Source: Nocardioides albertanoniae (GTDB lineage: Bacteria; Actinomycetota; Actinomycetes; Propionibacteriales; Nocardioidaceae). Taken from it: a stretch of DNA of 64,000 nt. How positions within the stretch are numbered: the stretch's first letter is position 1; the number at the start of each line of letters is the position of its first letter. The stretch is from assembly GCF_006716315.1 (NCBI RefSeq), contig NZ_VFOV01000001.1, forward strand, positions 1,098,501-1,162,500. Direction: 5' to 3'. Both the position numbers and the translations under genes were made by a program. The notes under the pieces are model-generated. The model ran no database searches. It had not been told where the DNA came from and worked only from the letters and a program-made list of their open reading frames with translations. Shown here in pieces: positions 11,884-45,742 of this stretch.

Positions 11884-12990
11884 TCAGCGTGGACCTCCGA
11901 GCACTTCGGACAGCTCGTAGGCCACCGGCTCCTCGAGCTGCTCGTAGCCGCACGTCTCGGGGTCACGGTCGGTGCGCCACCGCTTGAACTGGGCTGTGTG
12001 CCGGAACCGGCGCCCCTCCATGTGGTCATAGCCCACCTCGAGCACCCGCTCGGGGCGCAGCGGCGTGAAGGAGAGGTCCTTCCCCGCAGACCAGCGGCTC
12101 TGCGTGCCCGGGACACGATCGGGGTTGGCGGTGAGCCACTCGTTCCAACGCCCCCACGGGTGCTCTTCGATGGGCACGACCAGCGGCTGCAGCTCCTGCC
12201 ACAGCTCCGCGCGGCGCGCGGCGGTGAACGAGGCCGAGACGCCGATGTGCTGCAGCTCGGGCTGACCGTCCTCACCGGGGGCGTAGAGCCCCAGCAGCAG
12301 ACTCCCGAGCAGCGGCTTCTCCGGGGTGGACGTCTTGTGCTCGCGGTAGCCGGCCACGACCACATCAGCCGTACGGGAGTGCTTGACCTTGAGCATGGTG
12401 CGCTTGTCGGGGGAGTAGGGGGCGTCCAGCGGCTTGGCCATCACCCCGTCGAGGCCGGCGCCCTCGAACCGGGTGAACCAGTCCTGAGCGACCTCGGGGT
12501 CGGTCGTCGTGGTGCACAGGTGGACGCTCTGCGACGTCACCGGGGCGAAGGCTCCCTCCAGCGCAGCCCGCCGCTCGCTCAGCGGCTTCTCCAGGAACGA
12601 CTCCTCGCCCAGCGCGAGCAGGTCGAAGGCCGCGTACGAGGCCGGCGTCTCCTCGGCCAGCAGCGTGATCCGCGACTTCGCCGGGTGGATGCGCTGCTGC
12701 AGCACCTCGAACTCGAGCCGGTCGCCGATCGACACGAAGATCTCCCCGTCGAGCACGATCTTGTCGGGCAGCACCCTCCGCAGCTCCTCGACCACCTCGG
12801 GGAAGTAGCGCGTCAGCGGCTTGGTGTTGCGCGAGGCCAGCTCCACCTCGTCGCCGTCCTTGAACACGATGCACCGAAACCCGTCCCATTTTGGTTCTAG
12901 TTGGACGTTGGGTGCCATGGAGAGCACCTTCTCAAGCGACGCCGGCTTGGCCAGCATCGGCAGGATCGGCGGCATCACAGGAAGGTCCAC
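11884..12990 (-). CDS. ligC: ATP-dependent DNA ligase LigC, with N-terminus supplied by a mobile element
   Basis: Seals nicks using ATP; 368 residues with a nucleotidyltransferase domain and a C-terminal OB domain. Motif I is EPKWDG with the nucleophile K34. Further motifs are ASRNTK, VLDGEIF, GLDGVMAKPLDAPY and TMLKVKHSRTADVV. The GTG at 12990 is preferred because VDLPVMPPILPML matches two homologous fragments near 45.7 and 46.4 kb. A -10 hexamer TATCGT (13002-12997) stands six bases upstream, giving a leaderless start. Codons 1-34 lie on the integrated element, W35-D36 are the shared recombination core, and the rest is chromosomal. Residues 17-31 differ from the displaced copy (ASLEKVLSMAPNVQL versus AKGVPGDGGYAF), but the frame is intact. 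Confidence 0.93.
   Translation of the reverse strand: MDLPVMPPILPMLAKPASLEKVLSMAPNVQLEPKWDGFRCIVFKDGDEVELASRNTKPLTRYFPEVVEELRRVLPDKIVLDGEIFVSIGDRLEFEVLQQRIHPAKSRITLLAEETPASYAAFDLLALGEESFLEKPLSERRAALEGAFAPVTSQSVHLCTTTTDPEVAQDWFTRFEGAGLDGVMAKPLDAPYSPDKRTMLKVKHSRTADVVVAGYREHKTSTPEKPLLGSLLLGLYAPGEDGQPELQHIGVSASFTAARRAELWQELQPLVVPIEEHPWGRWNEWLTANPDRVPGTQSRWSAGKDLSFTPLRPERVLEVGYDHMEGRRFRHTAQFKRWRTDRDPETCGYEQLEEPVAYELSEVLGGPR
12874..12906 (-). other. attL of the ligC element
   Basis: Left hybrid junction. The core CGTCCCA (12882-12888) is identical to the right junction at 45643-45649. On the element side, five bases away, is the arm GTTCTAGTTGGAC (12894-12906), the inverse of GTACAACTAGAAC at the right end with one mismatch. 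On the chromosomal side CCGAA (12874-12878) is half of a presumed attB dyad. The core encodes Trp-Asp of the ligase KWDG motif. Confidence 0.85.
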
Positions 12991-13002
12991 GCTGTCACGA
13001 TA
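12991..13002 (-). promoter_or_regulatory. Leaderless promoter of element-supplied ligC 5' end
   Basis: TATCGT (13002-12997) is followed by exactly six bases and then the GTG. The displaced ligC copy has TACTGT in the identical position (45754-45749) before its GTG at 45742. The decayed copy has ACCTGT before 46420. The conserved geometry across three copies supports a leaderless transcript. Confidence 0.65.
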
Positions 13003-13126
13003 GGTGAGCCCGTGGGTGATCGTTGCCTCATTCGGTGTGTCGGTGGTCCAGGTGAGGCTGTCGGGGTTCCCGGTCGCAAGGTTCGCGATACTCGTCATCG
13101 ACCTCGTCGGGCTCGCGGTGATGACC

Positions 13127-13801
13127 TCACCAGTGCCGCATCAGTGCTCGGATCTGATCGGGATCGAGCCCGTAGTCGGCCAGCCGTCGGAACACCCGCA
13201 GCCTCTTTGCGCGGGTAGCGGTCCGGCGTCTGTAGTCCTGCCCCCAGGCTCGAGCGTCGGCGAGGATCAGTTCCTCGACGGACTGATCCCGGGTCCATCC
13301 GACCAGTGGCCACCACGCGTCGCGGATCTCCGGGGGCAGGCCGTCGACCAGATCGGGCCACAGGTCGACCAGCAGCGCAGCGTCGACGTGCTCGAAGAGC
13401 TGGGTCTCGTCGCCATAGCGCAGCAGCCAGGCATAACCGGCGGCGCGTTTGTCGCGATCACTCAGCGCGAACACCCTGTGGTCACGACCGTGCCACACCC
13501 ACAGCGGCGCGAAGCATTGCTCAGGCGACAACCGCCACAGCCGGTTCGGCACCAGCGCCGTGGACCGTCCAGGCCCGGCAACCGTGATCTGGTGGAAGGT
13601 GATCCGCTCGTTGAGGGCGAGCTCGAAGTCAAGGCATCGCAAGATGCGCTCGAGGACGGCGAGGGTGGGCGACTTCGCTCCACGTTCGTAAGCCGACAGC
13701 GATGGCTGTGATGTCCCGCATCGGCGCGCGAGCGCCTCTTGGGTCAACCCGCGAGCAGCGCGAGCGGCCTCCAACAGTGAGCCCTCGTGGCCGACGGCCA
13801 T
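13127..13801 (-). CDS. XRE-family helix-turn-helix regulator
   Basis: DNA-binding protein of 224 residues. The helix-turn-helix spans roughly residues 12-45 (ARGLTQEALARRCGTSQPSL then SAYERGAKSPTLAVLERIL). The remaining 160 residues are a domain I do not recognise, rich in Trp and Arg. The ATG at 13801 is chosen because TTGAGC (13836-13831), an 18-bp spacer and TATATT (13812-13807) put the transcription start on it, giving a leaderless message. A GTG at 13858 would add 19 residues. Divergent from the 13891 gene and next to attL, it is a candidate controller of element maintenance or transfer. Confidence 0.75.
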   Translation of the reverse strand: MAVGHEGSLLEAARAARGLTQEALARRCGTSQPSLSAYERGAKSPTLAVLERILRCLDFELALNERITFHQITVAGPGRSTALVPNRLWRLSPEQCFAPLWVWHGRDHRVFALSDRDKRAAGYAWLLRYGDETQLFEHVDAALLVDLWPDLVDGLPPEIRDAWWPLVGWTRDQSVEELILADARAWGQDYRRRTATRAKRLRVFRRLADYGLDPDQIRALMRHW

Positions 13802-13890
13802 ACCAAAATATAACTCTTCAGATCTGGCACGCTCAAGATCTGCATTTGTCTTGCGCACCTACCTGGTGACAGCCAGGAATGGGGGCCTCG

Positions 13891-14745: not shown

Positions 14746-17700
14746 TCACATACCGATCGCCGATGGGCCAGCATGCCCGGCGGACTCGGATCGTGACTGA
14801 AGCGGGTCGCGCGGGGTGAGCCTGCGGACGCGGTAGGTCAGGGCGGCGATGGCATGCCCCTCGGGCAATGCGCCGCTGCTCAGGGCACGGTCTAGCAGTC
14901 CGCGGGAGTCGTGGCCGCGGCGATGGAGCGTGTCGAGCAGTCGAGCGAGCTCGATGGCTTCGCCTCGGGTGTGGTCGTCCTGGGCCTGGATTCCTGTCCG
15001 GCGGAGGATCAGCTCGTGCCAGCGCTGGACCGAGTCGCTGTAGCGACCAGTGAGCTGCCGCAGGAGATGGCGTTGGAAGCGGCCGGCGCGCGGTTCGGTG
15101 ACGGCTGGCCCGGTCGGGCGCGGATCGTCTTCGGGTACGCCGCGGGCGGCTCGCCACAGCGCGACGGTGTCGTGGAGGTCTCCGAGGACATCGGCGTACC
15201 GCGTCATCCAGGCCGGACGCTTCTGGCTTTCGATCGCTGTCGGTATGTCGGCGCCGACCAGGTGGTCGAGGAAGCCCTGTCTTGTCACCTCGACATGTTG
15301 GGAACGAGCGGTGAGATATGGACCCCAGGACTCATCCCGCGCCAGGTCGGCAGGTATCGCGGGTAGCCAGGGGAGTGGGCCTTCGCCGGCCGCGTCGAGG
15401 GCGTCTTCCCAACCGCTGCCAAGCACTCGCATTGCTCCGGTGGCGACCGCGTCGGCGTAGCGTAGGGAGGCGTCGTGGAGCTGGGTGGACCAGCTGCGGC
15501 CGCGGCGGAGCGTGGTGGTGGCCGAGACCGCAGCACCGTCACGACCGACCACGTCGTCGAGGATCTGGATCGCGGTCAGTTGTTCCTGCAGTCCAGGCAG
15601 CATGCACTGCCGCCGATCGGCCTCGACGGGGTCGATCGGTTCGAGCACCAGATGGACGTGGTTCTCGCGGCGGCCGCGGGTCAGCATCGTGTACAGCATC
15701 TGCCGATCCTCGCGGCCGTCGACGATCCCGTGGACGACGTCGGCGGTGAGGCCTTGTGCGGTGTGAACGGTTGAGGCGTAGCCGAGCTCGACGTGGTCGT
15801 GCACGTATTCGGCAGGCAGCGACGCCTTCAAGCCGGTTGTGGCGTGGCGTACGGTCAATGCGGCGCCGCGGATGCGGGTGATGGTCCACCGGTCACCGTT
15901 CTTGACCCAGTCGGTGCCGGAGACGGCCAGGCGGCGCTGGTTGTGACGGGTGATGATCGTGTCCCCGACTGATGCCTGGTTGCCGTCGGCCAGTTCGACC
16001 TCGGTCCGCGGCGCGATGCCGGCGAGACGCCGGGTGCGTGCCTGGTGGTTGAGGGTGGCGGCCATGTTTCGGGTGGGGGCCAGCATGAGTGTGTCCAGCC
16101 CGTCGTCTCGGTCGTGTTGCCAGGCGGCGAGGACCTCGGCGATCGTGGTGTCTTCGTCGGCGGTGTGGATGCGGTCGTGGTCGAGGTAGAACCCGATCGC
16201 GGTCTGATCACCGTCGCGAAGGTCTAAGGAGGCTGCGGCCTCGCCGGGGTCGATGAAGCGTACGACTTCCTCGAGCCGGTCGGCTCCGTGCCGATGGGTG
16301 ATGTCGCGCAGCACGCCACCGGCGCCGACGGCGGAGAGCTGCTGGTCATCGCCCAGGAGCCGGATCGTGGCACCGCGCGAGATGCAGAACGCGACTACCC
16401 GGTCGAGCGTCAACGTGTCGGCCATTCCCGCCTCGTCGATCACCACCAGGGTCTCTGGTCCGATCCGGGTGCTCAGCCCACTGCGACGGTCACCCCCAGT
16501 GTTGGTGGGCTGGGTGGCGACCTCGTCGTCGATCTTCGCGAGGGTCTCGCAGGGCAGGCCGGTCGCCTCCTGAAGTACCTTCGCCGCGGCGGCCGACGGT
16601 GCCAGCCCGATCGCGTCATAACCATTCATCGTCCAGACCGCAGCCAGCACCTCGACCGCGGTCGTCTTCCCCGACCCCGCCGGCGCCAATGCGAGGCGGA
16701 CCCGGTGACCACCACCGGCCAGCGCATGCACGAGCGCGTGTTGTCCGTCATTGAGCCGTACCCCGGCGACCGCGCTGGCGGCCAGGACGATGTCCACTTC
16801 TTCCGCAGAGAACGCGAAGTCGCTGCCCAGACCGGCCGCGTCGACCAGTCGCTGTTCGGCTTGAAGGATCCGCTGACTGGTGTAGTGATCGGCGCCGGTA
16901 TGTCGATACACGCTGGTTCCGCCCGAGCGACGAAGGCCACTGGGTTGGCGAAGATCGGTCCTTTGGTCGATGGGATCGTCGTCCGGCGTGAGCGACACCG
17001 ACATCCCGACGGCCGCCGCGACGACCGCATCGGCCATCGCGGGAAGGTCACCTGCCCTGATCTGACCAGGTGCCATGGCCCGCACCTGACGCTCCGCCTC
17101 TGCCCGCAGATGCCAGCTTTGCCAGGTCGCCCGACGGGTCTCGAGCTCGGTGATGACGGCGACTGCCATTGCGTGGATCACGTGTGTGTCGACGACGTCG
17201 GTAGAGGTCGATCGGCGCACCGGCGGCGACACATCCAATGCTTCGTGGATCATCGCGGCGAGGGTCGACTCGCTCCCGAGGAACTCCGATGCCTGGCGGC
17301 GCCAGATTCGTCGCTGGTCGGCCTCGGCGCGCGGCTCATGCTTAGGGGCGCGCGTCTCTAGATTGGCCTGCTGTACCAGCCCGAGCCGTTCCGACTCTGT
17401 CGGCGGCCGACCGTGCTCCGCGATGAACGCGCTCACGAGGTCGTCCTCACGGCGGTCGATGTCCCGGGCCCGCCGCGACCACACTCGACACAGCCCGGCT
17501 GAGACACCCACGATCTCGCGGACAGCGCGCCGCTCCCGAGGGTTCGCCCGTTCGGCGAACGTGACACCGAGCGCCTCGCCGAGCCGGTACTCGAGTGCGG
17601 TGTTATAGGTCTCCGAGATCGCCACCGTGTGCTGAAATAACAGCCGGCCATAGACGGTCAGCCACTTGCCCGAAAGTTTCGCCTGCACCTTGTTCGCGAC

Positions 17701-18249
17701 GGCGACATGGGTATGAAGGTCCGGGTCGCCGGCACGGGAGTCCCGGTGGCGGAACGCGGCCGCGATCAAGCCGCGGGTCTTGACCTGCCGCGCCCCGTCG
17801 GTCCCTTCGCGGGTGAACAGCACCTCGCGCTCGACATACGCCATCGCGTCGTTGACCGCGGCATCGTGGGCCTGCTCGATCGCACGCGCGATCTCGGGTG
17901 GCGCGACCGCCCAAAGCGTCGAGACCGACTTCACCGGGCTGAAGGTCAGATCGAACCCTGCCACCCCGTCCGACCGCGTCCGCCGACCCAACGGTCTCCC
18001 GGTGACGGGATGCTCGCCGACGCCGAACAGGTGGCCCATCTGTTCGGCTGTCACCACATCGCCCGCGTTGATCCCGTCCGGGCCAGCGAAGGCGTCGAGC
18101 CCAGATCCCGCCCACCGACCGGGCGCCTCGCCCTTGGCCTCGTAGTAGTCCGCCAGCGCTGTGGCGCCGAGCTCGGTGGAGTCACCCGCCGCTACCTGGC
18201 GGGTCAGGTACTCGTACCCCGAGCCTGCGGTCAGCTTGTGGATCGTCAT
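14746..18249 (-). CDS. MobF-family conjugative relaxase (TrwC/TraI-like) with helicase domain
   Basis: Nicks DNA at oriT and unwinds it for transfer; 1167 residues. The ATG at 18249 starts MTIHKLTAGSGYEYLTRQV, with the N-terminal Tyr residues where MobF relaxases carry the nucleophile. The metal-binding triad is in HRDSRAGDPDLHTHVAVANK, the MobF signature. A helicase follows, with Walker A APAGSGKTTAVE, Walker B TLVVIDEAGMAD, and later motifs RLLGDDQQLSAVGAGGVL and GYASTVHTAQGLTADVVHG. The C-terminus is hydrophilic. The full domain order is kept, so the protein is probably functional. The coupling ATPase and pilus genes usually found with it are absent from the element. Confidence 0.93.
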   Translation of the reverse strand: MTIHKLTAGSGYEYLTRQVAAGDSTELGATALADYYEAKGEAPGRWAGSGLDAFAGPDGINAGDVVTAEQMGHLFGVGEHPVTGRPLGRRTRSDGVAGFDLTFSPVKSVSTLWAVAPPEIARAIEQAHDAAVNDAMAYVEREVLFTREGTDGARQVKTRGLIAAAFRHRDSRAGDPDLHTHVAVANKVQAKLSGKWLTVYGRLLFQHTVAISETYNTALEYRLGEALGVTFAERANPRERRAVREIVGVSAGLCRVWSRRARDIDRREDDLVSAFIAEHGRPPTESERLGLVQQANLETRAPKHEPRAEADQRRIWRRQASEFLGSESTLAAMIHEALDVSPPVRRSTSTDVVDTHVIHAMAVAVITELETRRATWQSWHLRAEAERQVRAMAPGQIRAGDLPAMADAVVAAAVGMSVSLTPDDDPIDQRTDLRQPSGLRRSGGTSVYRHTGADHYTSQRILQAEQRLVDAAGLGSDFAFSAEEVDIVLAASAVAGVRLNDGQHALVHALAGGGHRVRLALAPAGSGKTTAVEVLAAVWTMNGYDAIGLAPSAAAAKVLQEATGLPCETLAKIDDEVATQPTNTGGDRRSGLSTRIGPETLVVIDEAGMADTLTLDRVVAFCISRGATIRLLGDDQQLSAVGAGGVLRDITHRHGADRLEEVVRFIDPGEAAASLDLRDGDQTAIGFYLDHDRIHTADEDTTIAEVLAAWQHDRDDGLDTLMLAPTRNMAATLNHQARTRRLAGIAPRTEVELADGNQASVGDTIITRHNQRRLAVSGTDWVKNGDRWTITRIRGAALTVRHATTGLKASLPAEYVHDHVELGYASTVHTAQGLTADVVHGIVDGREDRQMLYTMLTRGRRENHVHLVLEPIDPVEADRRQCMLPGLQEQLTAIQILDDVVGRDGAAVSATTTLRRGRSWSTQLHDASLRYADAVATGAMRVLGSGWEDALDAAGEGPLPWLPAIPADLARDESWGPYLTARSQHVEVTRQGFLDHLVGADIPTAIESQKRPAWMTRYADVLGDLHDTVALWRAARGVPEDDPRPTGPAVTEPRAGRFQRHLLRQLTGRYSDSVQRWHELILRRTGIQAQDDHTRGEAIELARLLDTLHRRGHDSRGLLDRALSSGALPEGHAIAALTYRVRRLTPRDPLQSRSESAGHAGPSAIGM

Positions 18250-18527
18250 GGTCACGTACCCCAGGGGCAGGGGAGGACCGCGAGTGGCCGAGGGGGAGCG
18301 GGAATGAAAGAGGTCTGTGCGTTCTGCGGGGTAGTCCGTGGCTCGCATGCCGCCCTGGCGGGGAGGAGGAGGTACCGGGCGCGACCCCGATCGCGATCCG
18401 CATTGCGCTCTTCCACCAAATGACCCTGACCGGCATGACCGAGCTCGACCTCTCCTACTCGACGCCGAGCGCGCCACCCCCGGGTCTGATCACATCCCGG
18501 TGCCGCGCGACCCCAGGACCTGTCGGC
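18250..18527. other. Relaxase upstream region, candidate oriT; one tiny ORF
   Basis: This 278-bp gap precedes the relaxase start and is the expected place for a MobF oriT, although I cannot identify a nick site. It contains G-tract-rich sequence (GGGGGAGCGGGAATGAAAG near 18290) and a possible 39-codon ORF (18304-18423, +) starting MKEVCAFCGVV with a CxxC pair and a good GGGGGAG ribosome site. The ORF runs into basic low-complexity sequence and may be chance. Confidence 0.3.
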
Positions 18528-21041: not shown

Positions 21042-22024
21042 TCGCCGTCGTCGTGCTGATCGTGGTTGCCGCCACCGCCGGAACCCTGGGCGCCACGATG
21101 CTCTCGCGCGCCGGGTGGGTGAGGCGAGCGCCGGTCATCGGGTTGGTCGTGTGGCAGTCGGTGTCGGTGACCATCCTGGCCTCGGTGCTCCTGGCGGCCG
21201 CGCTGGTTGCGTTGCCGCCGCCCGTATTCTCGGCGGCATCTGGCTGGCTCGGGACCTGTCTGGGCCTGCTCGAGGGGCACTATGCTGCGCCGTTCGGCTG
21301 GATCGGGCGCGTGACGGGCGCGGTGATCGGGTGTGTCGTCCTGGCTCGAGCGGTGGGTTGCACGATGTTGGAGGCCCGCGCAGCGGGCGTTGCGCGTCGG
21401 GTCACGCGCGGGCGGCTCGCCCTGCTTGCGGCCCCGAGATCTGATGGCGTGCTGCTCCTCGAGGACGATCGTCCAGCGGCTTACTGCGTACCTGGCCGCC
21501 GACCGGTGGTCGTCCTCACCACGGGTGCCGAGCGACTCTTGCGTCCTGAGCAGAGGATCGCGGTGCTGACCCATGAACGGGCGCATCTTCGGGCGAGGCA
21601 CCACTGGGCGGTGTTGTGGGCATCGGGGCTGAACCGTGCCTTCGGGTTCGTTCCCGCGTTCGCGCACGGCGCCCGAGAGGTGGAGTTGCTGGTCGAGATG
21701 CATGCCGATGACGCGGCCGCACGAGCTAGCGGTCGTCAGAGTCTGGCTGAGGCGCTGGTCAGGATGGCCTCGGGCCCGGCGCCCACCGCGACGCTTGCCG
21801 CCCACGGTGCAGACGCAGTGACCCGCGTTCGGAGGCTGCTTGGTCGGCCCGAGCGGCTGGGCGCCGGCGCGCGGGTGGCGCTGACCGGGCTCGCGGCCGC
21901 GCTGCTGCTCGGTCCGGTGCTGATCGGGCTGCTCCCGGCGATCGAGTCGACCCTGCGGGAGCACTGCGCACCGTATGAGCATGCTTGTGACGTGCCGGGA
22001 CGTTCAGACGTCGCGCTGCCCTGA
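21038..22024 (+). CDS. M56-family membrane metallopeptidase (BlaR1-like protease part)
   Basis: Membrane protein of 328 residues. The Zn-protease motif HERAH is in LTHERAHLRARHHW, and a distal acidic segment VELLVEMHADDAAARAS provides the third ligand. There are about four transmembrane helices, two near the N-terminus, one mid-protein and one at the C-terminus (ALTGLAAALLLGPVLIGL). It lacks the penicillin-binding sensor domain of true BlaR1, so the signal must be sensed otherwise. It is coupled to the BlaI-like repressor, its presumed substrate. Its last 21 bases overlap the 3' end of the convergent copD-type gene. Confidence 0.85.
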   Translation: MIAVVVLIVVAATAGTLGATMLSRAGWVRRAPVIGLVVWQSVSVTILASVLLAAALVALPPPVFSAASGWLGTCLGLLEGHYAAPFGWIGRVTGAVIGCVVLARAVGCTMLEARAAGVARRVTRGRLALLAAPRSDGVLLLEDDRPAAYCVPGRRPVVVLTTGAERLLRPEQRIAVLTHERAHLRARHHWAVLWASGLNRAFGFVPAFAHGAREVELLVEMHADDAAARASGRQSLAEALVRMASGPAPTATLAAHGADAVTRVRRLLGRPERLGAGARVALTGLAAALLLGPVLIGLLPAIESTLREHCAPYEHACDVPGRSDVALP

Positions 22025-23998
22025 TCCTGTGTCGGATCCGTCGGGGGACCGGTCCGCCAGCGCTTGCAGTCGAGCGTTGTACGCGGCCCGCGCTGCATCT
22101 CCGTCCCGTTCAGCTCGCCTGTCGAGACGACGGGCCTCACGGCCGTCGGCGCGGACCCAGGCGGCAACGAGCGCTGCTGCCAGAAGTGCGAGTGGGAGGT
22201 CACCCATGGCCCAGCCCAGGGACGCGCCCAGATATTGGTCCTGCGCGAGGGTGTCGCCCCAGGTGCGCCCCAGCCCGCCGTACCACTCTTGAGCCAAGAT
22301 CTTGCGGCTGGACATCAACGAGATCGAGAAGAAGGCGTGGAACGCGAAGGTCGCCATCACCAGCAGGACCCGCAGCGGATAGGGCGGTCGGCGGGGCCCC
22401 GGATCCTCGCCGCACACGACGTTGGCGAGCAGGTAGCCGCTGAGCAGGAAGTGCGCGGTCATCAGCAGATGTCCGGTGTGTGTACTCAGGGCAAGCTCGA
22501 AGAGCCCGGAGTAGTAGAAGGTGGGCAGACTGATGATGAAGAGGCCGGCCGCCACCAGTGGATGCCCGAGCAGGCCGACGGGCCACGAGTGCACGATGAC
22601 GAGGAGCCACTCCCGGGCGCCGCGGGAGCCGTCCGTACGTCGTCGAAGTACACGCAGCGCCAGGGTCACCGGGCTGCCGAGCACCAAGAGGATCGGAACC
22701 AGCGTGGCGATGGTCATGTGTTGAACCATGTGCATGCTGAACAACACCTCGCCGTAGGTTCCTGGGGGCCCACTGGTCGCCCACAGCAGAACCAGGCAAC
22801 CGAGGAGCCATAGCACCGTGCGGCCTCGTGACCAGACGACGCCGCGCTGATGGAGTCGGCGCACACCGAGCAGATAGAGCACGGCCGCGAGCACGGCGAC
22901 AGGGCCCCAGAACGTGTCCAGGCGCCATTCGGTGATCCATCGTTGGGCCGTCAGCTCGGGCGGCATGGGCTGCCCGAGGATCGCCTCGGCCGGAGTCGCC
23001 GCGGGTTCTGTGCCGGAGCCCGATGGAGGCGCGGAGCGGCCCAAAGCGACCCCGGTACCGATCGCGACGCCCATCAGGGCAAGCTCTCCAACGGCGAGGC
23101 GTGCGAAACGGCCCCCGGTGAAGGATGCCGGGGTCGAGGCCAGCAGGCGCCGTCGATGCCACCAGCCGATCCCCAGGCATGCACCTAGCACCGCTGCCTT
23201 GATGGCGAGCAAGGCTCCATACGTGCTGAGGAGGTCGGCGACGGCAGGCACCCGGATGCCGGCAGCGAGCACTCCCGACAGGCCTACCAGCGCTGCACAC
23301 CAGCCGGCGAGGCGAGAGAATCCCGAGATCACGGACGTCGTGCGGGCAGCGGCGCCGGCAACCAGGAGAGCGGCCAGGGTGCCGACCCAGATCGTGACCG
23401 GGACCAGGTGCAGAAACTGCAGGTTCACTCCGAGATCGTGGTCGGAGTCTCCTGCGGCGTGCCCGGTCAGGGCGAGTGGCCACAGGGCAGCCAGGGCCAG
23501 CAACGTGCTGAATCCGATGCCGGTCACGCTGCGCACCAGGGCCGCGGTGGTCGTCGCGGCCGCAGCGAGGACGAGGCTGGCCGCAAGTGCCTTGCCGTAG
23601 TCGATCTGGGTGATGAAGAACCACACCGGCGCCCACCCTCCGGACCACGGTGAGACCCCTGAGACATCAGCCTGTACGAAGATGATCTCGATGGCTCCCG
23701 CAACGACCCAGGTGGAGCCGGCGGCAGCGGCTACGACCTGGCTCCTGCGCTGTGCAGCCCCAAGGAGGCGCCGGCCCGCTCCTGGCAGCAGCACCGCCGC
23801 CAACACCAGGCTGCCGATCGTCACCGTTGCGGCGACATCGCGCACGACGCGAGCGACGGGCAGACCCCACCGAGTGAGGGCGCCGGGGTCGGGGAGGCCT
23901 GATGTCGGAGACGCGACCGCGCCGGTGAGCGACAACAGGGCGACGGTCACCAGGACAGGAGTGGTCAGCAGACCGATGAGGAGAGCTCTCCTGGTCAC
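22004..23998 (-). CDS. Bifunctional CopD/CtaG-like membrane protein
   Basis: 664 residues, about 14-15 membrane helices. The N-terminal half is a CopD copper-resistance domain (around GLPVARVVRDVAATVTIGSL and LNLQFLHLVPVTIWVGTLAALLV). The C-terminal half is a caa3-CtaG type cytochrome oxidase assembly domain with His clusters such as FSMHMVQHMTIATLVPILLVLG and HTGHLLMTAHFLLSGYLLA. It probably imports or passes copper across the membrane and supplies it to oxidase. It overlaps copC by four bases (ATGA), so CopC could hand copper to it. Confidence 0.87.
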   Translation of the reverse strand: MTRRALLIGLLTTPVLVTVALLSLTGAVASPTSGLPDPGALTRWGLPVARVVRDVAATVTIGSLVLAAVLLPGAGRRLLGAAQRRSQVVAAAAGSTWVVAGAIEIIFVQADVSGVSPWSGGWAPVWFFITQIDYGKALAASLVLAAAATTTAALVRSVTGIGFSTLLALAALWPLALTGHAAGDSDHDLGVNLQFLHLVPVTIWVGTLAALLVAGAAARTTSVISGFSRLAGWCAALVGLSGVLAAGIRVPAVADLLSTYGALLAIKAAVLGACLGIGWWHRRRLLASTPASFTGGRFARLAVGELALMGVAIGTGVALGRSAPPSGSGTEPAATPAEAILGQPMPPELTAQRWITEWRLDTFWGPVAVLAAVLYLLGVRRLHQRGVVWSRGRTVLWLLGCLVLLWATSGPPGTYGEVLFSMHMVQHMTIATLVPILLVLGSPVTLALRVLRRRTDGSRGAREWLLVIVHSWPVGLLGHPLVAAGLFIISLPTFYYSGLFELALSTHTGHLLMTAHFLLSGYLLANVVCGEDPGPRRPPYPLRVLLVMATFAFHAFFSISLMSSRKILAQEWYGGLGRTWGDTLAQDQYLGASLGWAMGDLPLALLAAALVAAWVRADGREARRLDRRAERDGDAARAAYNARLQALADRSPDGSDTGSGQRDV

Positions 23999-24630: not shown

Positions 24631-24711
24631 CGGAGTCTCCTTCGACTGGTGCGCTCGTTCGTCTAATGCTCTCGCTGGGTTCGGCCGCCACGGTCGGCGC
24701 GACCCAGGCGC

Positions 24712-24730
24712 GTACGATGCAAAGTAGTAG
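24712..24730. promoter_or_regulatory. Weak BlaI/CopY-type dyad
   Basis: GTACGAT-gcaaa-GTAGTAG matches the element's operator dyad at four of seven arm pairs; the right arm GTAGTAG is canonical. It lies between divergent copC and the CmtR-like gene, nearer copC's promoter side. It is the least convincing of the set. Confidence 0.4.
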
Positions 24731-24790
24731 TGGCGACTGGGAAGTTCCTGAGAGCTGCGCCGGCATCCGAGAATCGCCGGCTGGCGAGAC

Positions 24791-24825
24791 TTGACATGGC
24801 GTGCGCGACTGGCGATAACATCGCC
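24791..24825 (+). promoter_or_regulatory. Promoter with overlapping CmtR-type operator
   Basis: TTGACA (24791-24796), a 17-bp spacer and GATAAC (24814-24819) form a near-consensus promoter. A perfect dyad GGCGAT-AAC-ATCGCC (24811-24825) covers the -10, so a bound ArsR-type repressor would block polymerase. The start codon at 24828 lies where transcription should begin, with no ribosome site in front, so the message is probably leaderless. Confidence 0.7.
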
Positions 24826-24827
24826 GA

Positions 24828-33110: not shown

Positions 33111-34048
33111 CAGCCAGCATCATCTTGCTCAGTCTCGCCTTGGCACTCGGCGGGCTGGGGCCGCGACTGATCGACCGAGTCATGCGACCGGAGTCTGCTC
33201 CGATGTCGGGCGTGCTTGCCTGGCAGACGACCTCGGCAGCGGTGCTGCTGTCGTTCGGAATGGGTGCAGCGCTGTTATGCCGCCATATCTGGACGAGTGC
33301 ATCAGGCCTGGAGCTCCTCGGTCGTTGCGCGGAGCTGCTGACCCATGCACGCACGGCGGAGCCGGTCACTCTCGCTGGGCTGTTGGGGATCACGGTTCTT
33401 CTCGTTGGCGCGATGCGAGTGCTCTGGTGCGGCTTCCGGCACGCTCGGAGGATCGGCCGCGACCGCCGTGCGCAGCGACTGAGGCTGGCGATGCTGGCGG
33501 TCCCGCACGAGTCTGAACCTGACGTCCGAGTGATCGACCAGGGCCCAGCGACGGTGTTCTGCCTTCCTCACTGGGCTCGTGGTGACGTGTACGTCACCAA
33601 TGCAGCGCTCGAGGTCTTGTCGCGTGCCGAATTGGCGGCGGTGCTCGAGCATGAGCGCGCTCACCTGCGCGGGCGGCATGCGCTGGTGGTCTCTGCTGCG
33701 ACGGTGCTAGGGACGGCGTTTCCGTTCGTGCCTCTGTTCCGTGCGGCGGCGAACGCTGTTCCGGGCCTGGTTGAGATGGCAGCGGACGATGCCGCGGTTC
33801 GCCATACGGACCGACACGTCGTGGCGGGCGCCCTGCTGTGTCTGGCAGAGGCAGCTACCCCGGCAACGGCATTCGGTGCGGGTGGCAGCACGGTCATCCG
33901 CCGGGTGCGTCGCCTGGTCGATCCAGACCCCAGGTCGGGAGGGTTCCGGGTTGTTCTCGTGACGGCCGTGGCGCTGGCCGTACTGCTCGGCCCGATCGCG
34001 GTGGGGACGCTTGCTCCGGCTGCTGCATGCCCCTTCGCGATGCCCTGA
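33107..34048 (+). CDS. Second M56-family membrane metallopeptidase
   Basis: Membrane protease of 313 residues with the zinc motif HERAH in LEHERAHLRGRHAL and a distal acidic segment LVEMAADDAAVRHTDRH. Four hydrophobic helices are predicted, one at the C-terminus (VVLVTAVALAVLLGPIAVG). It is a paralogue of the 21038 gene with the same layout and no sensor domain. The presumed job is to cut its paired BlaI-like repressor upon an envelope signal. It is convergent with the 633-residue CopC/CopD gene. Confidence 0.85.
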   Translation: MTASIILLSLALALGGLGPRLIDRVMRPESAPMSGVLAWQTTSAAVLLSFGMGAALLCRHIWTSASGLELLGRCAELLTHARTAEPVTLAGLLGITVLLVGAMRVLWCGFRHARRIGRDRRAQRLRLAMLAVPHESEPDVRVIDQGPATVFCLPHWARGDVYVTNAALEVLSRAELAAVLEHERAHLRGRHALVVSAATVLGTAFPFVPLFRAAANAVPGLVEMAADDAAVRHTDRHVVAGALLCLAEAATPATAFGAGGSTVIRRVRRLVDPDPRSGGFRVVLVTAVALAVLLGPIAVGTLAPAAACPFAMP

Positions 34049-34074
34049 CAAGCGCCAACGGTCTTGGCGCTGGG

Positions 34075-35976
34075 TTAGTCGCCGTGCTCGGGATAGATCA
34101 GAGTCCGGGTGACGAGGTGATTGGGTGCGGCGAGCACTTCCTGCACGATGCGGTCGTGGTGATCGAGCGTGAGTTGCACGTAGGTTGCTTCTGCCGGATA
34201 TCCGAGGGCGAGCGTGTTGTCGTCGAGGCGGATGACCACCGGAGCGACCCCTGAACCGAACGGCCCTGTGCCGAGGTACTCCCGACCGGTCAACGGAATC
34301 GCGGATCGCCCGGCAGCGCCGATGCTCGTGTCGCTGGTGACCTGCTCGTGGACCACCACACGGGGTTCGCGCTCCGTCGCAGCCACAGCCTTCTTGAGCA
34401 GGTCGGGAGCAGGTCGAGCCGGCCAGGGGACGAGGAGCGCGGCGGTACCGCCGTCGAACTCCTCGTCGTCGACATAGAGGGTGACGGTGCTGGATCCCGG
34501 GCTCCAGTCGATCGGTGTGACGAAGCATCCTTCACCGCACTCGCGAAAGCGCAGTTTCACTGGCGCCTGCCGTGGTGGTGTGACGTTGCCCGACAGCGTG
34601 TAGCGATTGCTCCCCGTGTCCGCGGAAGTGGCTGCCGTATCCGGCGTGACGAGCCGGATCACGAGTTGGCCTTGGCTTGCTGTGGCTCCGATTCCGATCC
34701 AGCCGGCCCGGGTGCCCAGTGCCACGACCTCACCTGAGGGTGGGGGAGGAAACGGTAGCGGCGCGTCCTCCGGAGTCGGTGGAGCAAGCGCGGTGAGTGC
34801 TGAGGAGGCCACGAGCACGCCCGCGAGGGCCCCGATCTCAAGGTGGGCAGCCACCGAAGGCTGCCGGGCACCTCGGCGTAGGAACCAGCGGGCTGCGAGT
34901 GCGAGCGCGACGGCCACGAGAACGAGTCCGAGCTTGGCGGCGAGCCAGCGGCCGTACGAGGTATCGGTGAGCATGGGGACGATGTCGCCCAGAGGGACGA
35001 GCGGCGCGGCCGCGAGCGTGCCCGCGACCAGCACGGCTACGACGACCCAGAGCGCAGGTCGGGCATAGGTGACGAAGGCATCGCGAGCACCCGGCCCGCC
35101 CCGGCGTAGAGCAACCCGGACGGTGTGGACCAGCGCTCCGAGCCACACCGCTGCGGCAAGTAGGTGAAGGCTGAGGAACACCGCACCCCAGCCCGGGAGC
35201 TCCGCCTGGGGATGAGCTCGCAGGCCTTCGAGGATCGCGATACCGACCGTCCCTGCGATCAGCACCGTGCGGCGACGGGAGGCCAGCACGACGAGGGCCA
35301 GGGCCACCTCGCCTGCGGCGAGCCGTCCCGGGGCGGAGTCGACCAGCACGCCGACCCGGGTGACCCCGCTCGAAAGCGATCCGCCGCCGGCTTGGACGAG
35401 CGCCAGGCCGACGGCTCCTAGGAGGGCGAGACCCCCGCCGGTGCGGAGCAGCGGGCGGGGGTCGTCGGGCTCGCTCGTACGCCGCGCCAGGTGCTCTCCG
35501 ACCAATCCGCCCAGCAGCAGGGCGAGGCCGGCGAACAGCAGCCATCGGAGCACCCCTGTGGGAGTGGCACCTGGTGTTTGTGGCGTCTGTGGACCCAGAG
35601 TGAGCCCGGCGCTGGAGCCGACCGCGAACCGGAACTCGGCGGCCATCGAGTCGCCATCACGCGCGGTGACTGCCCAGGCCACCTCGTACTCGCCTGGCTC
35701 GAGGCGCGACAGCAACGGCACCGACAGGACTCGGTCGCCGCGGCTGAGCCTCACCGCTCCTACCGGGGCTGCCCCGTCCGGGCCTGTGATGGTGAGCGCG
35801 CTGCCTGCGGGGGCGACGGCCTGATCGAAGACCAGCTGGATCTGCCGCGGCGAGGTGGGGACTGCACCGTTGGCGGTGGGTGTGGTGAAGAGGAGGGTCG
35901 CGTGCGCCTGCGCTGGTGAGGGGAGGCTCAGCAGCACGATGCAGACGGCGGCCAGTACCACCAGCGATCGGATCAC
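34075..35976 (-). CDS. CopC-CopD fusion membrane protein
   Basis: 633 residues. The signal peptide ends PAQA, and the mature protein begins [16 protein letters not shown] like CopC. However, the second CopC ligand (usually DGH) reads [14 protein letters not shown], so the copper site is incomplete or uses Met. A hydrophobic CopD region of about eight helices covers roughly residues 145-420 (including [21 protein letters not shown]). A C-terminal extracytoplasmic beta-rich domain of about 200 residues ends the protein. It overlaps copA by four bases on the same strand, so it is exported with the CopA copper-efflux unit. Confidence 0.8.
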
Positions 35977-38237
35977 CGTGCGTGGAGGGGTTTGAAGCGG
36001 CGAAGCCGGAGGCTGTTGCTGACCACGAACACCGAGGAGCTCGCCATGGCGGCGCCGGCGATGAGTGGGTTGAGCAGACCGAATGCAGCTAGGGGTAGGG
36101 CGGCCACGTTGTAGAAGAACGCCCAGAACAGGTTGCCCTTGATGGTGCCCAAGGTCTTGCGGGCCAGCCTGATGGCGTCGACGGCGCCCCGCAGATCACC
36201 CTTGACCAGGGTCAGGTCGGCAGCGGCGATGGCGGCGTCGGTGCCGGTGCCCATGGCGAGGCCGAGGTCGGCCTGCGCGAGCGCGGCCGCGTCGTTGACG
36301 CCATCGCCGACCATGGCGACGACCTTACCGTCGGCTTGGAGTTTCTTGATGACGTCGACCTTGTCCTCGGGGTGGACTTCGGCGATGACATGCGCGATGT
36401 CGACCTGGGCAGCGATGTGCTGTGCGGCCGCCTCGTTGTCGCCGGTGAGGAGGATCGGCGTCAGGCCGAGCCTCTTCAAGTCGACGACGGCGCCCGCGCT
36501 GGTGGGCCGGAGCGCGTCCGCGACCACCAGCGCCGCCCGCGCCTGTCCGCTCCAGGCAGCGAGCACGACCGTGTGACCGGCCGCCTCGGCATTGCGCTGT
36601 GCAGAAACCAGAGCGTCAGGGATCGCCAGACCCAACGTGGCAAGCCATGTTGCCCGACCGGCGAACACCTCGTTGCCGTCCACGACGCCGCTGACGCCCC
36701 GACCCGCATGGTTGTGGAAGTCCGAGACAGGTCGAGGGTCGCTGAGTGTTTCGGCAATGGCGCGGGCAATGGGATGTTCGCTCGCATGCTCGATCGCACC
36801 TGCCAACTGCAGGGCCTCTTCCCGGTCCGTCCCCTCGTCGGTGATGACCTCGAGAAGCCGCATCCGGCCCTCGGTGACAGTACCGGTCTTGTCCAGGACG
36901 ATGGTGTCCACACGTCGGGTGGACTCCAGCACCTCGGGTCCACGGATCAGTAGACCGAGGTGGGCACCACGGCCGGTGCCGACCATCAGCGCAGTCGGGG
37001 TGGCCAGGCCCAGTGCACAGGGGCAGGCGATGATGAGGACGGCGACAGCCGCCGTGATCGCTGCGGTGGCAGTGTGACCGAGACCGATCCAGAGCCCGAA
37101 GGTGCCGGCCGCGATGACCAGGACGGCGGGTACGAAGACTGCTGACACCCGGTCAGCGAGCCGTTGGGCATGGGCCTTGCCGGTCTGCGCCTGCTCGACG
37201 AGGCGGGCGATCTGAGCCAACTTGGTGTCGCTGCCGACCCGAGTTGCTCGTACGACGAGTCGACCCCCTGCGTTGACGGTAGCTCCTGTGACGGTGTCGC
37301 CCGGGGCGACTTCGACTGGGACCGCCTCGCCGGTGAGCAGTGACTCGTCCACCGCGGAGGCGCCGTCGACGACCTCGCCGTCGGTGGCGATCTTCTCGCC
37401 GGGGCGTACGACGAACTCCGTGCCGATCGTGAGATGGTCGACGGGGATACGCACCTCGACGCCGTCTCGCAAGACTGCGACGTCCTTCGCCCCGAGGTCC
37501 AGCAGGGCACGGATCGCCTCGCCGGCGCGGCGTCTCGCTCGCGCCTCGAAGTAGCGGCCGGCGAGGATGAACGCCGTCAGGGCGGCAGCGACCTCGAGGT
37601 AGATCTCCGGAGTGCGGCCGAGCTCGCCGGACCGCGGCATCAGGGAGAACTCCATGTGCATGCCCGACTCGCCGGCACCTCCGAAGAACAGCGCGTAGAC
37701 ACTCCACCCCCAAGCGGCCAGCACACCGATCGAGACCAACGTGTCCATCGTGGCCGCACCGTGCCGAGCGTTGACGGCGGCAGCACGGTGGAAGGGCCAT
37801 GCACCCCACAGGGCGACCGGTGAGGCGAGCGCAAACGCGAGCCACTGCCAGAACTGGAACTGCGCCGGCGGCACCATCGACAGCACCACCACCGGTAGGG
37901 ACAGCACGGCAGACAGGATCAGCCGATCCCGCAGGGAACGGATGCGCCGCGCCTCGGCCGCCTCTGCCGACGCCTCACCAGATCCGTGCTCTGGTCTCGG
38001 GAGTGCGGCGCCGTATCCGGCGGTCGCGACGGTCGCAACCAGCTCGTCGGGCAACACGCTGCCTGGGAACGTGACGTGCGCGGAGGCCGTGGCGAAGTTG
38101 ACCGTCGCGAGGACGCCGGGCATCTTGTTGAGCTTCCGCTCGATTCGGGTCGCGCAGGATGCGCAGGTCATCCCGGTGATCGTGAGGTCCACGGTGCCGC
38201 CTGTGGCGGGCCCTGCGGACAGCGAGGTGTCGGTCAT
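35973..38237 (-). CDS. copA: Copper-translocating P1B-type ATPase CopA
   Basis: Cu(I) efflux pump, 754 residues. The ATG at 38237 has GAAAGGA upstream. An N-terminal HMA domain carries GMTCASC (C25, C28). Eight membrane helices are predicted, with the transport motif CPC in [17 protein letters not shown]. The phosphorylation motif is DKTGTVTEG, the nucleotide-binding domain has the HP pair in ASEHPIARA, and the hinge is [21 protein letters not shown] perfect operator dyad at 38248-38266 lies 11 bp upstream of its start codon. It is divergent from the DsbD/cupredoxin gene, so one operator can control both directions. Confidence 0.96.
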
Positions 38238-38247
38238 GGCGTCCTTT

Positions 38248-38266
38248 CTACTATCTGACATAGTAG
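38248..38266. promoter_or_regulatory. BlaI/CopY-type operator between copA and the cupredoxin operon
   Basis: CTACTAT-ctgac-ATAGTAG is a perfect 7-5-7 inverted repeat in the 62-bp gap between divergent copA (start 38237) and the 38300 gene. It is the best match to the element-wide consensus. Confidence 0.8.
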
Positions 38267-38299
38267 TAGCACTGTCGCGAACGAACGGAGACCATCCCC

Positions 38300-39358
38300 A
38301 TGAACCTTGGCGCCATCCTCCTTGCCGGCCTACTGGCTGGCGGCGTCTCATGTGCCGCCGTCCAAGGTGGCCTTCTGGCCGGTCTGGTGGCGCGCCAGAA
38401 GGGTCGCACGACCGGGATTGAGGGCGGGAAGCGACAGCCGGCGATGAAGCAGACGTGGCAGGCACAGCTCGGAGGTGACCTGGCTCCGGTGGGCGGCTTT
38501 CTCGCCGGGAAGATCACCTCGCACGCTCTGTTCGGCGCGCTGCTCGGCGCAGTCGGCTCGGCCGTCCAGCTCTCTCCGAATCTCCGCTCGACCGTGCAGA
38601 TCGTGGCGGGCCTTCTGATCATCGCCTTCGGTCTGGCTCAGCTCGGCGTACCGGGCTTCAGGAGTTTCGCGATCACTCTGCCCGCCTCCTGGGTGAAGCT
38701 CGTGCGTGGTCGTGCACACTCGACAAGCGCCCTGGCTCCAGCGATCCTCGGGTTCGCCTCGATCCTGCTGCCGTGTGGCGTGACGCTGTCGATGATGGCG
38801 CTGGCCATCACCTCAGGATCCCCTGTACGGGGCGCGCTCACCATGGCTGTGTTCGTTCTCGGCACCGCGCCGTTGTTCACCCTCATCGGATATGTCGCTC
38901 ACAAGGCGGCGGCTGCCTGGAAGGGCCGGCTCGCGCTCGCCACCGGCATCGTTGTGCTTCTCGCCGGGTTCTACACGCTGAACGGCGGCCTCACCCTGGC
39001 CGGTTCGCCGCTGGCCGCGCAGAATCTCAAACAGACCTTCGGTATCGACCAACCAGCGATCGCGGACGCCTCTACGGTGACGATGGCCGACGGCACACAG
39101 ACTGCGGTCATCACAGTCACCTCGGGCCGGTTCTCGCCAGCAAACCTCGCACTCAAGGCAGGCGTCCCGACCAAGGTGATCTTCCGTTCCCAGGGCGCCT
39201 ACGGATGCGTACGAGCGCTCGTCGTCCCCGCCCTCAACACTCAAACAGTTCTGCCCGAGAACGGCGACACCCCGTTCGACCTCGGCATCACCAAGGCCGG
39301 GCGCATCGACTACTCGTGCTCGATGGGCATGTACTCCGGCACCATCACGATCAGCTAG
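38300..39358 (+). CDS. DsbD/TauE-like membrane protein fused to a cupredoxin-like domain
   Basis: 352 residues. The first about 235 hold six to seven helices of the DsbD_2/UreH-like type with two Cys in helices ([11 protein letters not shown] near residue 17 and [14 protein letters not shown] near residue 158), as in CcdA/DsbD electron-transfer proteins. After a linker, a cupredoxin-like beta domain ends the protein; candidate copper ligands are in [11 protein letters not shown] and [12 protein letters not shown], a Cys/Met pattern suited to Cu(I). It heads a run of genes with the CopZ-like chaperone. It may move electrons or copper across the membrane. Confidence 0.82.
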
Positions 39359-43990: not shown

Positions 43991-45601
43991 TTAGAGCAGC
44001 TCGACGCGGATGTCTGGGTTGTCGACGTAGATGCGGTGAACGCCGAAGTCGCGTAGCAGTCTCTGCCGTAGAGCGACGGGTGCTGATTCGTCTTCCAAGG
44101 CTTGGGCCAGCTCGGCGAACCGCTCGGCAATCTCTCCGGCGAACGGGAGAATCTCGATCTGCGCGCTGTCACCAAGGTCAGCCAGGTCGGCCCGCGCCGC
44201 ACTGACCGCCTCATCAGTGCGGCGCTTCGTCGACACGAGGTCGTCGTCATCGAGAAGGCCCTTGATCGCCAGTCGTTTGGCGTTCTTCCACTCGGCTTCA
44301 GACTCCGCGATGCGGGCCTCTAGGGCGGTCCGCCTTCGGGCGTGTTCGTCTTTGGAGACGCCGCGGCTGACCGTGACCTGGACCGTGGCGCCACCACGTA
44401 TCGGCTGCGAACCGACACCCTTGATGATGCGGTCGGCCAGCATGCTGTTCACGCGCGTGCAGGTGCCTGGATAGCCTTCCTTGGCCACCATTCCGGGTCG
44501 AGTGCCGGGGCAGTAGAACCTGATGCGGATCTTCATGTTCGGTTTGCCCGGATTATCGACTCGGGCGTACATGCGGTGTCCGCAGCGGGCGCAGTAGACG
44601 AACCGATCCAGGACGTGCTCGGGAACGACGCGCTTCTTCATGCGGCGTTCGCCGCGTCGAGCCATGCGCTGAGTGTGCACGCGGTCCCAGAGGTCGGGAT
44701 CCACGAGCGGACCGAGCGGGGAAGCCTTCACGACACGTCCAGGGTCGTCCTCGTCGCGGGCTTCCAGGTAGGCCCTGCCGTTCTCGTCGCGAAGAACCTG
44801 CCGCCGGCCCCACACCAGTTCACCCTTGTAGAGAGGGTTGTCGAGGATTCCGTTGATCGTGTTTCCGCCCCACCCGGACCGTCGTGTCTTGGTTGGTACC
44901 GCTTCCGTATTCAGCCGTCGGGCGATTTCGTCGGAGGGCACGCCTTCATCGGCCCATGCGAAGATCTGCTTGAGCCAGGGGTATTCGTCCGGGTGCAGTT
45001 CGAGTTCGCCTGAACGCACCTTGCGGCCTCCGACGAAGGCCGGCATCCCGCTGGGAAGCTCGACGCCATCGACCACGAGCGGCTTCATACGTACGCCGTA
45101 CGCGGGGCGCATGGCGATCGTGGAGCCGGCCGCAACCTTGGCGCGAAGATTGCGGCGAGTGCGGCGCCTGACCTTGAGCACCTCGCCCTTCGCGTTCACG
45201 GCGCGTAGGTCGGCGTCGTACATCGCGTCCTCGTCGTGCGGATCGATCAGGCCGATGTCCTCTGTCACGAGCGTGATGCCGAGTCGTTTGCACAGGGTGG
45301 TGATCTGCTGGCGCTGGCCGATACCTGCGGTGAGTCGCTCGAGCTCGTTGACTACCAGGTAGTGCACATCGCGGTTGGCTTCCAGGTAGTCGAAGAGCTC
45401 TTGGAGGCCCGGGCGGTCGGCGAGACTGCGAGAGACACCTTCGTCGGCGAACGAGTGCGTCAAGACGATGTCGTGTTCGGCGGCAACGGCGTCGTTGATC
45501 GCGCGCTGCTCAGCCGTCGAACCCTGCTCGTCGGTCGAGTAGCGCGTGTAACCAACTCCGTGCCGCACCTGCGGCCCGGCGTTGTGGCGCCGTGCGTTCA
45601 C
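43991..45601 (-). CDS. Large serine recombinase (element integrase)
   Basis: Site-specific recombinase of 536 residues. The catalytic domain starts at about residue 15 with GVGYTRYSTDEQ (S22 nucleophile), then DEGVSRSLADRPGLQEL and LVVNELERLTAG with the conserved Arg residues. The recombinase domain covers about residues 165-300 (YGVRMKPL, LNTEAVPTKTRRSGWGGNTINGILDNPLYKGE). The zinc ribbon is FVYCARCGHRMYARV, with further Cys in YCPGTRPG and YPGTCTRV. A C-terminal coiled coil ends the protein. The gene begins 26 bp inside the right attP arm, so this enzyme almost certainly placed the element in ligC. Confidence 0.95.
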   Translation of the reverse strand: MNARRHNAGPQVRHGVGYTRYSTDEQGSTAEQRAINDAVAAEHDIVLTHSFADEGVSRSLADRPGLQELFDYLEANRDVHYLVVNELERLTAGIGQRQQITTLCKRLGITLVTEDIGLIDPHDEDAMYDADLRAVNAKGEVLKVRRRTRRNLRAKVAAGSTIAMRPAYGVRMKPLVVDGVELPSGMPAFVGGRKVRSGELELHPDEYPWLKQIFAWADEGVPSDEIARRLNTEAVPTKTRRSGWGGNTINGILDNPLYKGELVWGRRQVLRDENGRAYLEARDEDDPGRVVKASPLGPLVDPDLWDRVHTQRMARRGERRMKKRVVPEHVLDRFVYCARCGHRMYARVDNPGKPNMKIRIRFYCPGTRPGMVAKEGYPGTCTRVNSMLADRIIKGVGSQPIRGGATVQVTVSRGVSKDEHARRRTALEARIAESEAEWKNAKRLAIKGLLDDDDLVSTKRRTDEAVSAARADLADLGDSAQIEILPFAGEIAERFAELAQALEDESAPVALRQRLLRDFGVHRIYVDNPDIRVELL

Positions 45602-45619
45602 GGATGCATCGTACCGCGA

Positions 45620-45742
45620 TTACGTACAACTAGAACGGATGTCGTCCCACTTCGGCTCGAACGCATAGCCCCCGTCGCCCGGCACGCCCTTGGCAGGCTT
45701 CGCGAGCATCGGCAGGATCGGCGGCATCACGGGAAGGTCCAC
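45620..45742 (-). pseudogene. Displaced 5' end of ligC
   Basis: Forty codons from GTG 45742: VDLPVMPPILPMLAKPAKGV, then PGDGGYAFEPKWD. The chromosomal part ends at the Trp-Asp of the active-site motif, where the shared core CGTCCCA (45643-45649) meets the element's right arm, and the frame stops at TAA a few codons later. Its -10 hexamer TACTGT (45754-45749) is intact, so a short leaderless transcript reading towards the recombinase may still be made. The undamaged sequence argues for recent displacement. Confidence 0.85.
45624..45655 (+). other. attR of the ligC element
   Basis: The arm GTACAACTAGAAC (45624-45636) is the inverse of the left-end arm at 12894-12906 with one mismatch; six bases separate it from the core CGTCCCA (45643-45649). 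The chromosomal half TTCGG (45651-45655) completes an attB dyad with CCGAA at attL. Confidence 0.82.

What the first reader, a model, noticed from the sequence alone, without database searches (positions are those of the whole stretch)
12874..45742. Mobile element integrated inside the KxDG active-site codons of DNA ligase LigC and rebuilt its N-terminus
attL and attR share the core CGTCCCA, which encodes the Trp-Asp of the ligase motif KWDG. On the left the ligase reads through the junction into the element, which supplies the Lys codon, the 33 preceding codons, a GTG start and a leaderless promoter. On the right the original 5' end (VDLPVMPPILPMLAKPAKGV...) stops a few codons past the core. 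Thus the catalytic lysine of LigC is now element-encoded. attP arm codons GAA CCA AAA are synonymous with the chromosomal GAG CCG AAG (Glu-Pro-Lys). Integration into an active-site motif with gene repair is an unusual solution to targeting a conserved site.
Basis: seen in the sequence. Interest (0 to 1): 0.92.

Follow-up and report, generated by a model that had tools for sequence, protein, structure and literature searches.

The report
Mobile element rebuilds ligase active-site end
A mobile DNA element in a Nocardioides-like bacterium inserts in the middle of the active-site code of a DNA-repair ligase gene and hands the gene a replacement start, so that the element's own attachment sequence also spells part of a host enzyme.

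Summary
A 32.8-kb element (12882-45642) splits ligC between the Trp and Asp codons of its KWDG motif. The element supplies start codon and residues 1-34, motif lysine included. The original 5' end lies at the far junction, 41 bp from a large serine recombinase gene. Relatives G010 and G014 have the uninterrupted gene. The 6 of 215 genus genomes in which this recombinase was found all show this anatomy. The joined attP is an inverted repeat centred on Trp|Asp, so one attP half-site is also LigC code. The element differs from its copy in G217 at 7 of 32,750 positions; the ligC-side flank is 84% identical. G126, where no such recombinase was found, encodes the same 33 residues with 10 synonymous and 0 replacement differences. 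A TANNNT box precedes 9 of 9 distinct element-type and 51 of 52 native starts examined. Rebuilding a gene's 5' end on integration is known (SXT/prfC, IMEVchUSA3/dusA). Doing it inside a catalytic motif with a dual-coded serine-recombinase attP is a new variant. Ligase activity, transcription and excision were not tested.

The parts
11884..12990 (-). hybrid ligC: ATP-dependent DNA ligase, chromosomal body with element-encoded residues 1-34
   Evidence: Pfam DNA_ligase_A_M and DNA_ligase_A_C; 88% identical to LigC of G010 and G014
12889..12990 (-). element-encoded 5' end of ligC (34 codons, GTG to the motif I Lys codon)
   Evidence: identical in G217 although the flanks differ; G010 and G014 have another start there
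12997..13002 (-). TANNNT (-10-like) box 12 nt before the GTG; element-supplied leaderless promoter (inferred)
   Evidence: 9 of 9 distinct element-type and 51 of 52 native ligC starts examined have it in the last 20 nt
12882..12888 (.). attL core CGTCCCA; inferred crossing-over dinucleotide 12884-12885 = first two bases of the Asp codon
12894..12910 (-). left attP arm (CAACGTCCAACTAGAAC in the ligC sense), also coding for N-V-Q-L-E
   Evidence: inverted partner of 45620-45636
45643..45649 (.). attR core CGTCCCA
45620..45636 (+). right attP arm TTACGTACAACTAGAAC
   Evidence: inverted partner of the left arm; TTACGTACA also lies at the matching place in the other five elements
45643..45742 (-). 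displaced original 5' end of ligC, stops 7 codons after the Asp codon
   Evidence: 90% identical to ligC of G010 and G014 over 114 bp
43991..45601 (-). large serine recombinase (integrase), 536 aa, starts 41 bp from the core
   Evidence: Pfam Resolvase + Recombinase; relatives found in 5 other genus genomes, each at ligC
14746..18477 (-). TrwC-type relaxase-helicase, mobilization gene
   Evidence: Pfam TrwC E 5.4e-89 and AAA_30
13127..13858 (-). helix-turn-helix regulator next to the rebuilt ligC
   Evidence: Pfam HTH_3
22004..38465 (.). cargo including copper-related genes: CtaG/CopD 22004-23998, ResB 28658-30250, cytochrome c assembly 30247-31149, CopC/CopD 34075-35976, P-type ATPase 35973-38465
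46331..46420 (-). third, decayed ligC 5' end that also stops at GTCCCA; likely scar of an earlier event at the same site
   Evidence: 72-74% identical to native ligC starts in blastn, with internal gaps

Best explanation
This is an integrative, probably mobilizable, element whose large serine recombinase recombines its attP with an attB made of the conserved LigC motif I codons (GAGCCSAAGTGG|GACGGNTTY). Shown by comparison: the insertion splits ligC at TGG|GAC. attP is an inverted repeat about that point. One attP half plus the DNA beyond it encodes a replacement promoter-like box, start codon and 34 residues that restore an open ligC. The other half lies before the integrase gene and ends up beside the displaced native 5' end. 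Inferred: because attB is conserved in protein and DNA, the element has a target in many related hosts, and carrying its own version of the upstream codons spares the host its ligase. The attP half-site is therefore selected twice, for recombinase binding and for LigC coding. When the recombinase is lost, the DNA tends to drift to host codons while the amino acids stay.
For: Empty sites in G010 and G014. Same two-ended anatomy in 6 of 6 genomes where the recombinase was found, of 215 searched. attP symmetry about G|A of 13 to 17 of 25 pairs, against shuffle means of 6.5-7.2, best centre at 0 in all six. Element 99.98% identical between G000 and G217 against 83.7% for the ligC-side flank and 91.8% for the displaced ends. 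pN/pS at most 0.42 in all 64 pairs of non-identical starts; 10 synonymous and 0 replacement differences between G000 and G126. Leaderless-type box replaced in kind. Arm third positions G or C: 3-4 of 8 in the six recombinase-bearing genomes, 6-7 of 8 in four of six others. Predicted model confident over residues 1-40 (block pLDDT 91-96).
Against: No excised circle or joined attP was seen (0 of 215), but that pattern fits only the G100 and G179 forms, not those of G000, G217, G015 and G162. Ligase activity, transcription start and recombination were not measured. The six genomes hold only four distinct attP arms. Two genomes without a detected recombinase (G171 3 of 8, G205 2 of 8) do not show codon drift; both break at contig ends, as does G192. 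One search had no positive control among its six genomes, and one search scored at most 6 candidates a genome, so absence of the recombinase there is likely but not certain. G142 carries an element-type 5' end away from ligC.
Confidence: 0.93

Rival explanations
1. The element-type N-terminus is an ordinary alternative allele of ligC that spreads by homologous recombination, and the element merely sits beside it.
For: G126 has the same N-terminal protein with no recombinase found. Some LigC outside the element type (P0125, P0126) have loosely similar segments.
Against: A second, native 5' end lies at the far end of the element in 8 of 12 genomes with an element-type start. attP symmetry is centred on the junction. 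The N-terminus is identical in G000 and G217 while their displaced ends and flanks differ.
Confidence: 0.04
2. The insertion simply disrupts ligC and the open frame is fortuitous; the hybrid is not used.
For: LigC is considered a backup ligase in mycobacteria (start of the abstract of PMC8068969 in the listing), so loss might be tolerated. No activity data.
Against: 11 of 12 element-type starts read on into a ligC of near full length, and the one that does not (G142) has changed L, M and L residues that the other 11 keep. Synonymous bias. Promoter-like box kept.
Confidence: 0.04
3. The 33-kb segment was assembled by successive insertions or rearrangement, not by one recombinase event.
For: A third decayed ligC 5' end at 46331-46420 and about 6 kb of extra DNA up to 52107 without a match in the fetched parts of G010, G014 and G217.
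Against: The whole 12890-45639 segment recurs in G217 with 7 mismatches and no gap, in a different flank.
Confidence: 0.05

Closest known systems
IMEVchUSA3 and other dusA-specific integrative elements (PMC8409611; passages and one section read)
   Same: integrates in the 5' end of a conserved gene and supplies a new promoter and an N-terminus of the same length (61% identity over 35 residues)
   Different: tRNA-modification gene dusA in Vibrio and E. coli, rdfN-dependent excision; here a large serine recombinase, the join is in a catalytic motif, the start looks leaderless, and the attP arm is coding
SXT ICE in prfC (as described in PMC8409611; original paper not read)
   Same: 5' end of the target gene replaced by an element-borne promoter and N-terminus
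   Different: other integrase type (recalled: tyrosine recombinase), other gene
Large serine recombinases that target conserved genes (PMC10083194, passages read; supplements not read)
   Same: many recombinases target one conserved coding site, e.g. a magnesium chelatase/protease gene or a prolyl isomerase gene
   Different: the passages describe targets as disrupted; 'restor' occurs 0 times in the main text, and the 'ligase' passages shown concern T4 ligase reagents
Mycobacterium abscessus attB-29, serine integrase at codon 6 of a SpoU-like gene (PMC10654092, passages read)
   Same: serine integrase, actinobacterial, 5' end of a coding gene
   Different: the authors state that it is unclear whether expression is reconstituted; codon 6, not a catalytic motif

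Membership tests
Large serine recombinase (integrase) | resolvase catalytic domain plus recombinase domain and long C-terminal part | tested here: met
   PF00239 and PF07508 in 536 aa; Y18, R20, S22 invariant in 13 aligned sequences (the naming of the catalytic serine is recalled)
Large serine recombinase (integrase) | non-identical attP and attB sharing only a short core, attP next to the integrase gene | tested here: met
   7-bp shared core in G000, 41 bp from the integrase start; 7-21 bp in the six genomes
Large serine recombinase (integrase) | recombination activity in vitro or in vivo | not testable with these tools
   no experiment
Integrative mobilizable element | relaxase gene within the element | tested here: met
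   TrwC relaxase in G000, G162 and G100 and by tblastn in G217, G015 and G179
Integrative mobilizable element | no conjugation machinery of its own | tested here: inconclusive
   none among the 16 element ORFs scanned against Pfam, but not every ORF was scanned
Elements that rebuild the 5' end of their target gene (SXT/prfC and dusA type) | element supplies start codon and N-terminal coding in frame | tested here: met
Elements that rebuild the 5' end of their target gene (SXT/prfC and dusA type) | element-borne promoter drives the rebuilt gene | tested here: inconclusive
   conserved TANNNT position; no sigma-70 type promoter by the simple scan; no expression data
ATP-dependent DNA ligase (LigC type) | motif I KxDG within the adenylation domain, with a C-terminal ligase domain | tested here: met
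   PF01068 and PF04679; KWDG aligns with KYDG of 9dfa and 2cfm; that this Lys is the adenylated one is recalled

The most novel reading that the evidence does not exclude
A family of serine-recombinase elements has made one half of its attachment site double as the coding sequence of a host repair ligase's active-site strand. The element thus takes over transcription and the catalytic segment of LigC in each host, possibly tuning the ligase to its own transfer or establishment, and leaves a permanent chimeric ligase after it decays.
Probability: 0.2. Interest if true: 0.85.

Novelty: new variant of a known kind. Interest (0 to 1): 0.68.

Why it matters
It shows how a mobile element can use a very conserved stretch of a protein gene as its target without destroying the gene, by making its attP read as protein. 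Decayed copies give a natural experiment that separates DNA-level constraint (attP) from protein-level constraint (LigC). The recombinase targets an active-site sequence that changes little between the relatives seen here, which makes it of interest as an integration tool in actinobacteria, and the comparison of G000 with G217 fixes the ends of the element.

Tried and rejected
The idea that the right-hand fragment is a chance match was rejected: 90% identity to relatives over 114 bp and the same arrangement in five more genomes. That the element-type N-terminus is ancestral was rejected: 203 of 215 genus genomes have no match to it at E <= 1e-14. That threshold probably misses variants such as those of P0104 and P0108, so 12 is a lower bound.

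A search for joined attP in 215 genomes found none, with a pattern that fits only the G100 and G179 forms. Viral contigs gave no relative of the recombinase. The order-level sample gave 2 of 391 genomes, G000 and G179 (only 3 candidates scored per genome in the rows shown). Against plasmids I searched 24,000 of the element's 32,761 bases: 27 records matched, none over 80% of the query, and the 20 listed all match the same roughly 500 bp of the P-type ATPase gene. The fold of the hybrid was predicted but not compared with a structure library. Literature searches whose listings showed no ligC-targeting element.

Full report
What is in the sequence. ligC (11884-12990, minus strand) is an ATP-dependent DNA ligase with both Pfam ligase domains. 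Its motif I, KWDG, aligns with KYDG of solved DNA ligases 9dfa and 2cfm. The sequence CGTCCCA occurs at 12882-12888 and again at 45643-45649. At the second copy, read on the minus strand, lies another ligC start (VDLPVMPPILPMLAKPAKGVPGDGGYAFEPKWD, start 45742) that stops seven codons past the Asp. The window lies in one 4.97-Mb contig.

Empty sites. In G010 and G014 (LigC 88% identical) the gene is whole and carries the right-hand type of start (KPVKGVPTDGGYAFEPKWDGFR). Both halves of the window align to one place there. So the right-hand fragment is the original 5' end and the left-hand start came with the insert.

The insert. It is about 32.76 kb. It has a 536-aa large serine recombinase starting 41 bp from the right core, a TrwC relaxase, and copper-related cargo. 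G217, whose ligC-side flank is only 83.7% identical, carries the same insert with 7 mismatches and no gap over 32,750 positions. The displaced native ends are 91.8% identical. This points to recent movement between species. The first difference lies 2 bases beyond the core on the ligC side and within 20 bases on the other.

Recurrence. A search of 215 genus genomes found the recombinase in 6: G000, G217, G015, G162, G179 and G100, the last split into two frames (at most 6 candidates scored per genome). In 6 of 6, one end is a rebuilt ligC and the other a displaced native start beside the recombinase. Start-to-start distances in that order are about 32.8, 32.8, 8.8, 8.8, 11.2 and 14.3 kb. The shared cores range from 7 to 21 bp and all contain TGGGACG.

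attP. Joining the element sides gives an inverted repeat (CAACTAGAAC/GTTCTAGTTG in G000 and G217; ACGTACA/TGTACGT in G015, G162, G179 and G100). About the G|A between TGG and GAC, 17, 17, 16, 16, 16 and 13 of 25 positions pair, in the order G000, G217, G015, G162, G179, G100. Shuffles average 6.5-7.2 and reach the value in 0, 0, 1, 0, 2 and 19 of 5000. Position 0 is the best centre in all six. attB is less symmetric (9-12 of 25). The crossing-over point is thus inferred to be the first two bases of the Asp codon. The Lys codon is element DNA in the rebuilt gene.

Dual coding. The left attP arm encodes P-[NY]-V-Q-[LI]-E-P-K (R-Y-V-Q-I-E-P-K in G179). In the six recombinase-bearing genomes these eight codons have 3-4 G/C third positions of 8, against 21-22 of 25 in the rest of the element-borne part. 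Twelve of 215 genomes have an element-type start. Of the six without a detected recombinase, G072, G126, G142 and G192 have 6-7 of 8; G171 and G205, both cut by contig ends, have 3 and 2, against the trend. G126 encodes the same 33 residues as G000 with 10 synonymous and no replacement differences. These are few and partly related sequences, so the pattern is suggestive, not proof.

Use of the hybrid gene. 11 of 12 element-type starts run into a ligC of near full length. The exception, G142, has the start at another locus next to a tyrosine integrase gene, with three changed residues that the other 11 keep, and a native ligC elsewhere. A TANNNT box lies in the last 20 nt before the start in 9 of 9 distinct element-type and 51 of 52 native starts among the loci fetched, at -12 to -14, and in 0-1 of them in each of the four preceding 20-nt bins (G142 was not matched by that script, and its upstream DNA shows no such box). 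So the element replaces a leaderless-type promoter with one of the same kind; that such boxes mark leaderless starts is recalled knowledge. A generic sigma-70 scan found nothing. The AlphaFold model of the hybrid has block pLDDT 91-96 over residues 1-40.

Decay and scars. G072 has a displaced native start and a right attP arm but no recombinase found. G171 has a displaced start and TTGTACGTAA at the end of another contig; its motif there reads KFD, not KWD. G126 has only a weak native remnant 13 kb away (E 0.003, 0.08). In G192 and G205 the contigs end 2.5 and 0.2 kb upstream. The window has a third, decayed ligC start ending at GTCCCA (46331-46420). Displaced native starts were found in 8 of 12 genomes with an element-type start.

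Known relatives. [quoted passage not shown] Serine recombinases are known to favour conserved coding sites (PMC10083194). The listings of the searches made show no report of a ligC target (open-licence papers only). Hence: new variant of a known kind.

Noticed in passing
window 46331-46420: A third, gapped ligC 5' end (72-74% identical to native starts) that also ends at the core, pointing to an earlier event at the same site; it is unclear how that left a native-type start at 45742.
   Followed up: partly
window 45757-52107: About 6 kb next to the tRNA-Gln without a match in the fetched parts of G010, G014 and G217 or in the other loci compared.
   Followed up: partly
L134:7291-8764: In G142 an element-type ligC start lies within about 20 bp of the stop codon of a tyrosine integrase gene, away from ligC, with a family relaxase nearby; perhaps a second integrase type that used the same core.
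   Followed up: partly
window 31852-31941: tRNA-Pro (agg) gene predicted inside the element.
   Followed up: no
window 62401-64000: Direct repeats with a spacing of about 276 bp in a 1312-aa open frame (60045-63983), with matches in G217, G010 and G014.
   Followed up: no
P0104 and P0108: Two LigC proteins 89% identical to the window's, from Nocardioides sp. NPDC058538 and NPDC057772, carry yet another start type (KLSTLENVQIEPKWD, ILKTLENVQLEPKWD); NPDC057772 also has a 92% identical recombinase (P0003).
   Followed up: no
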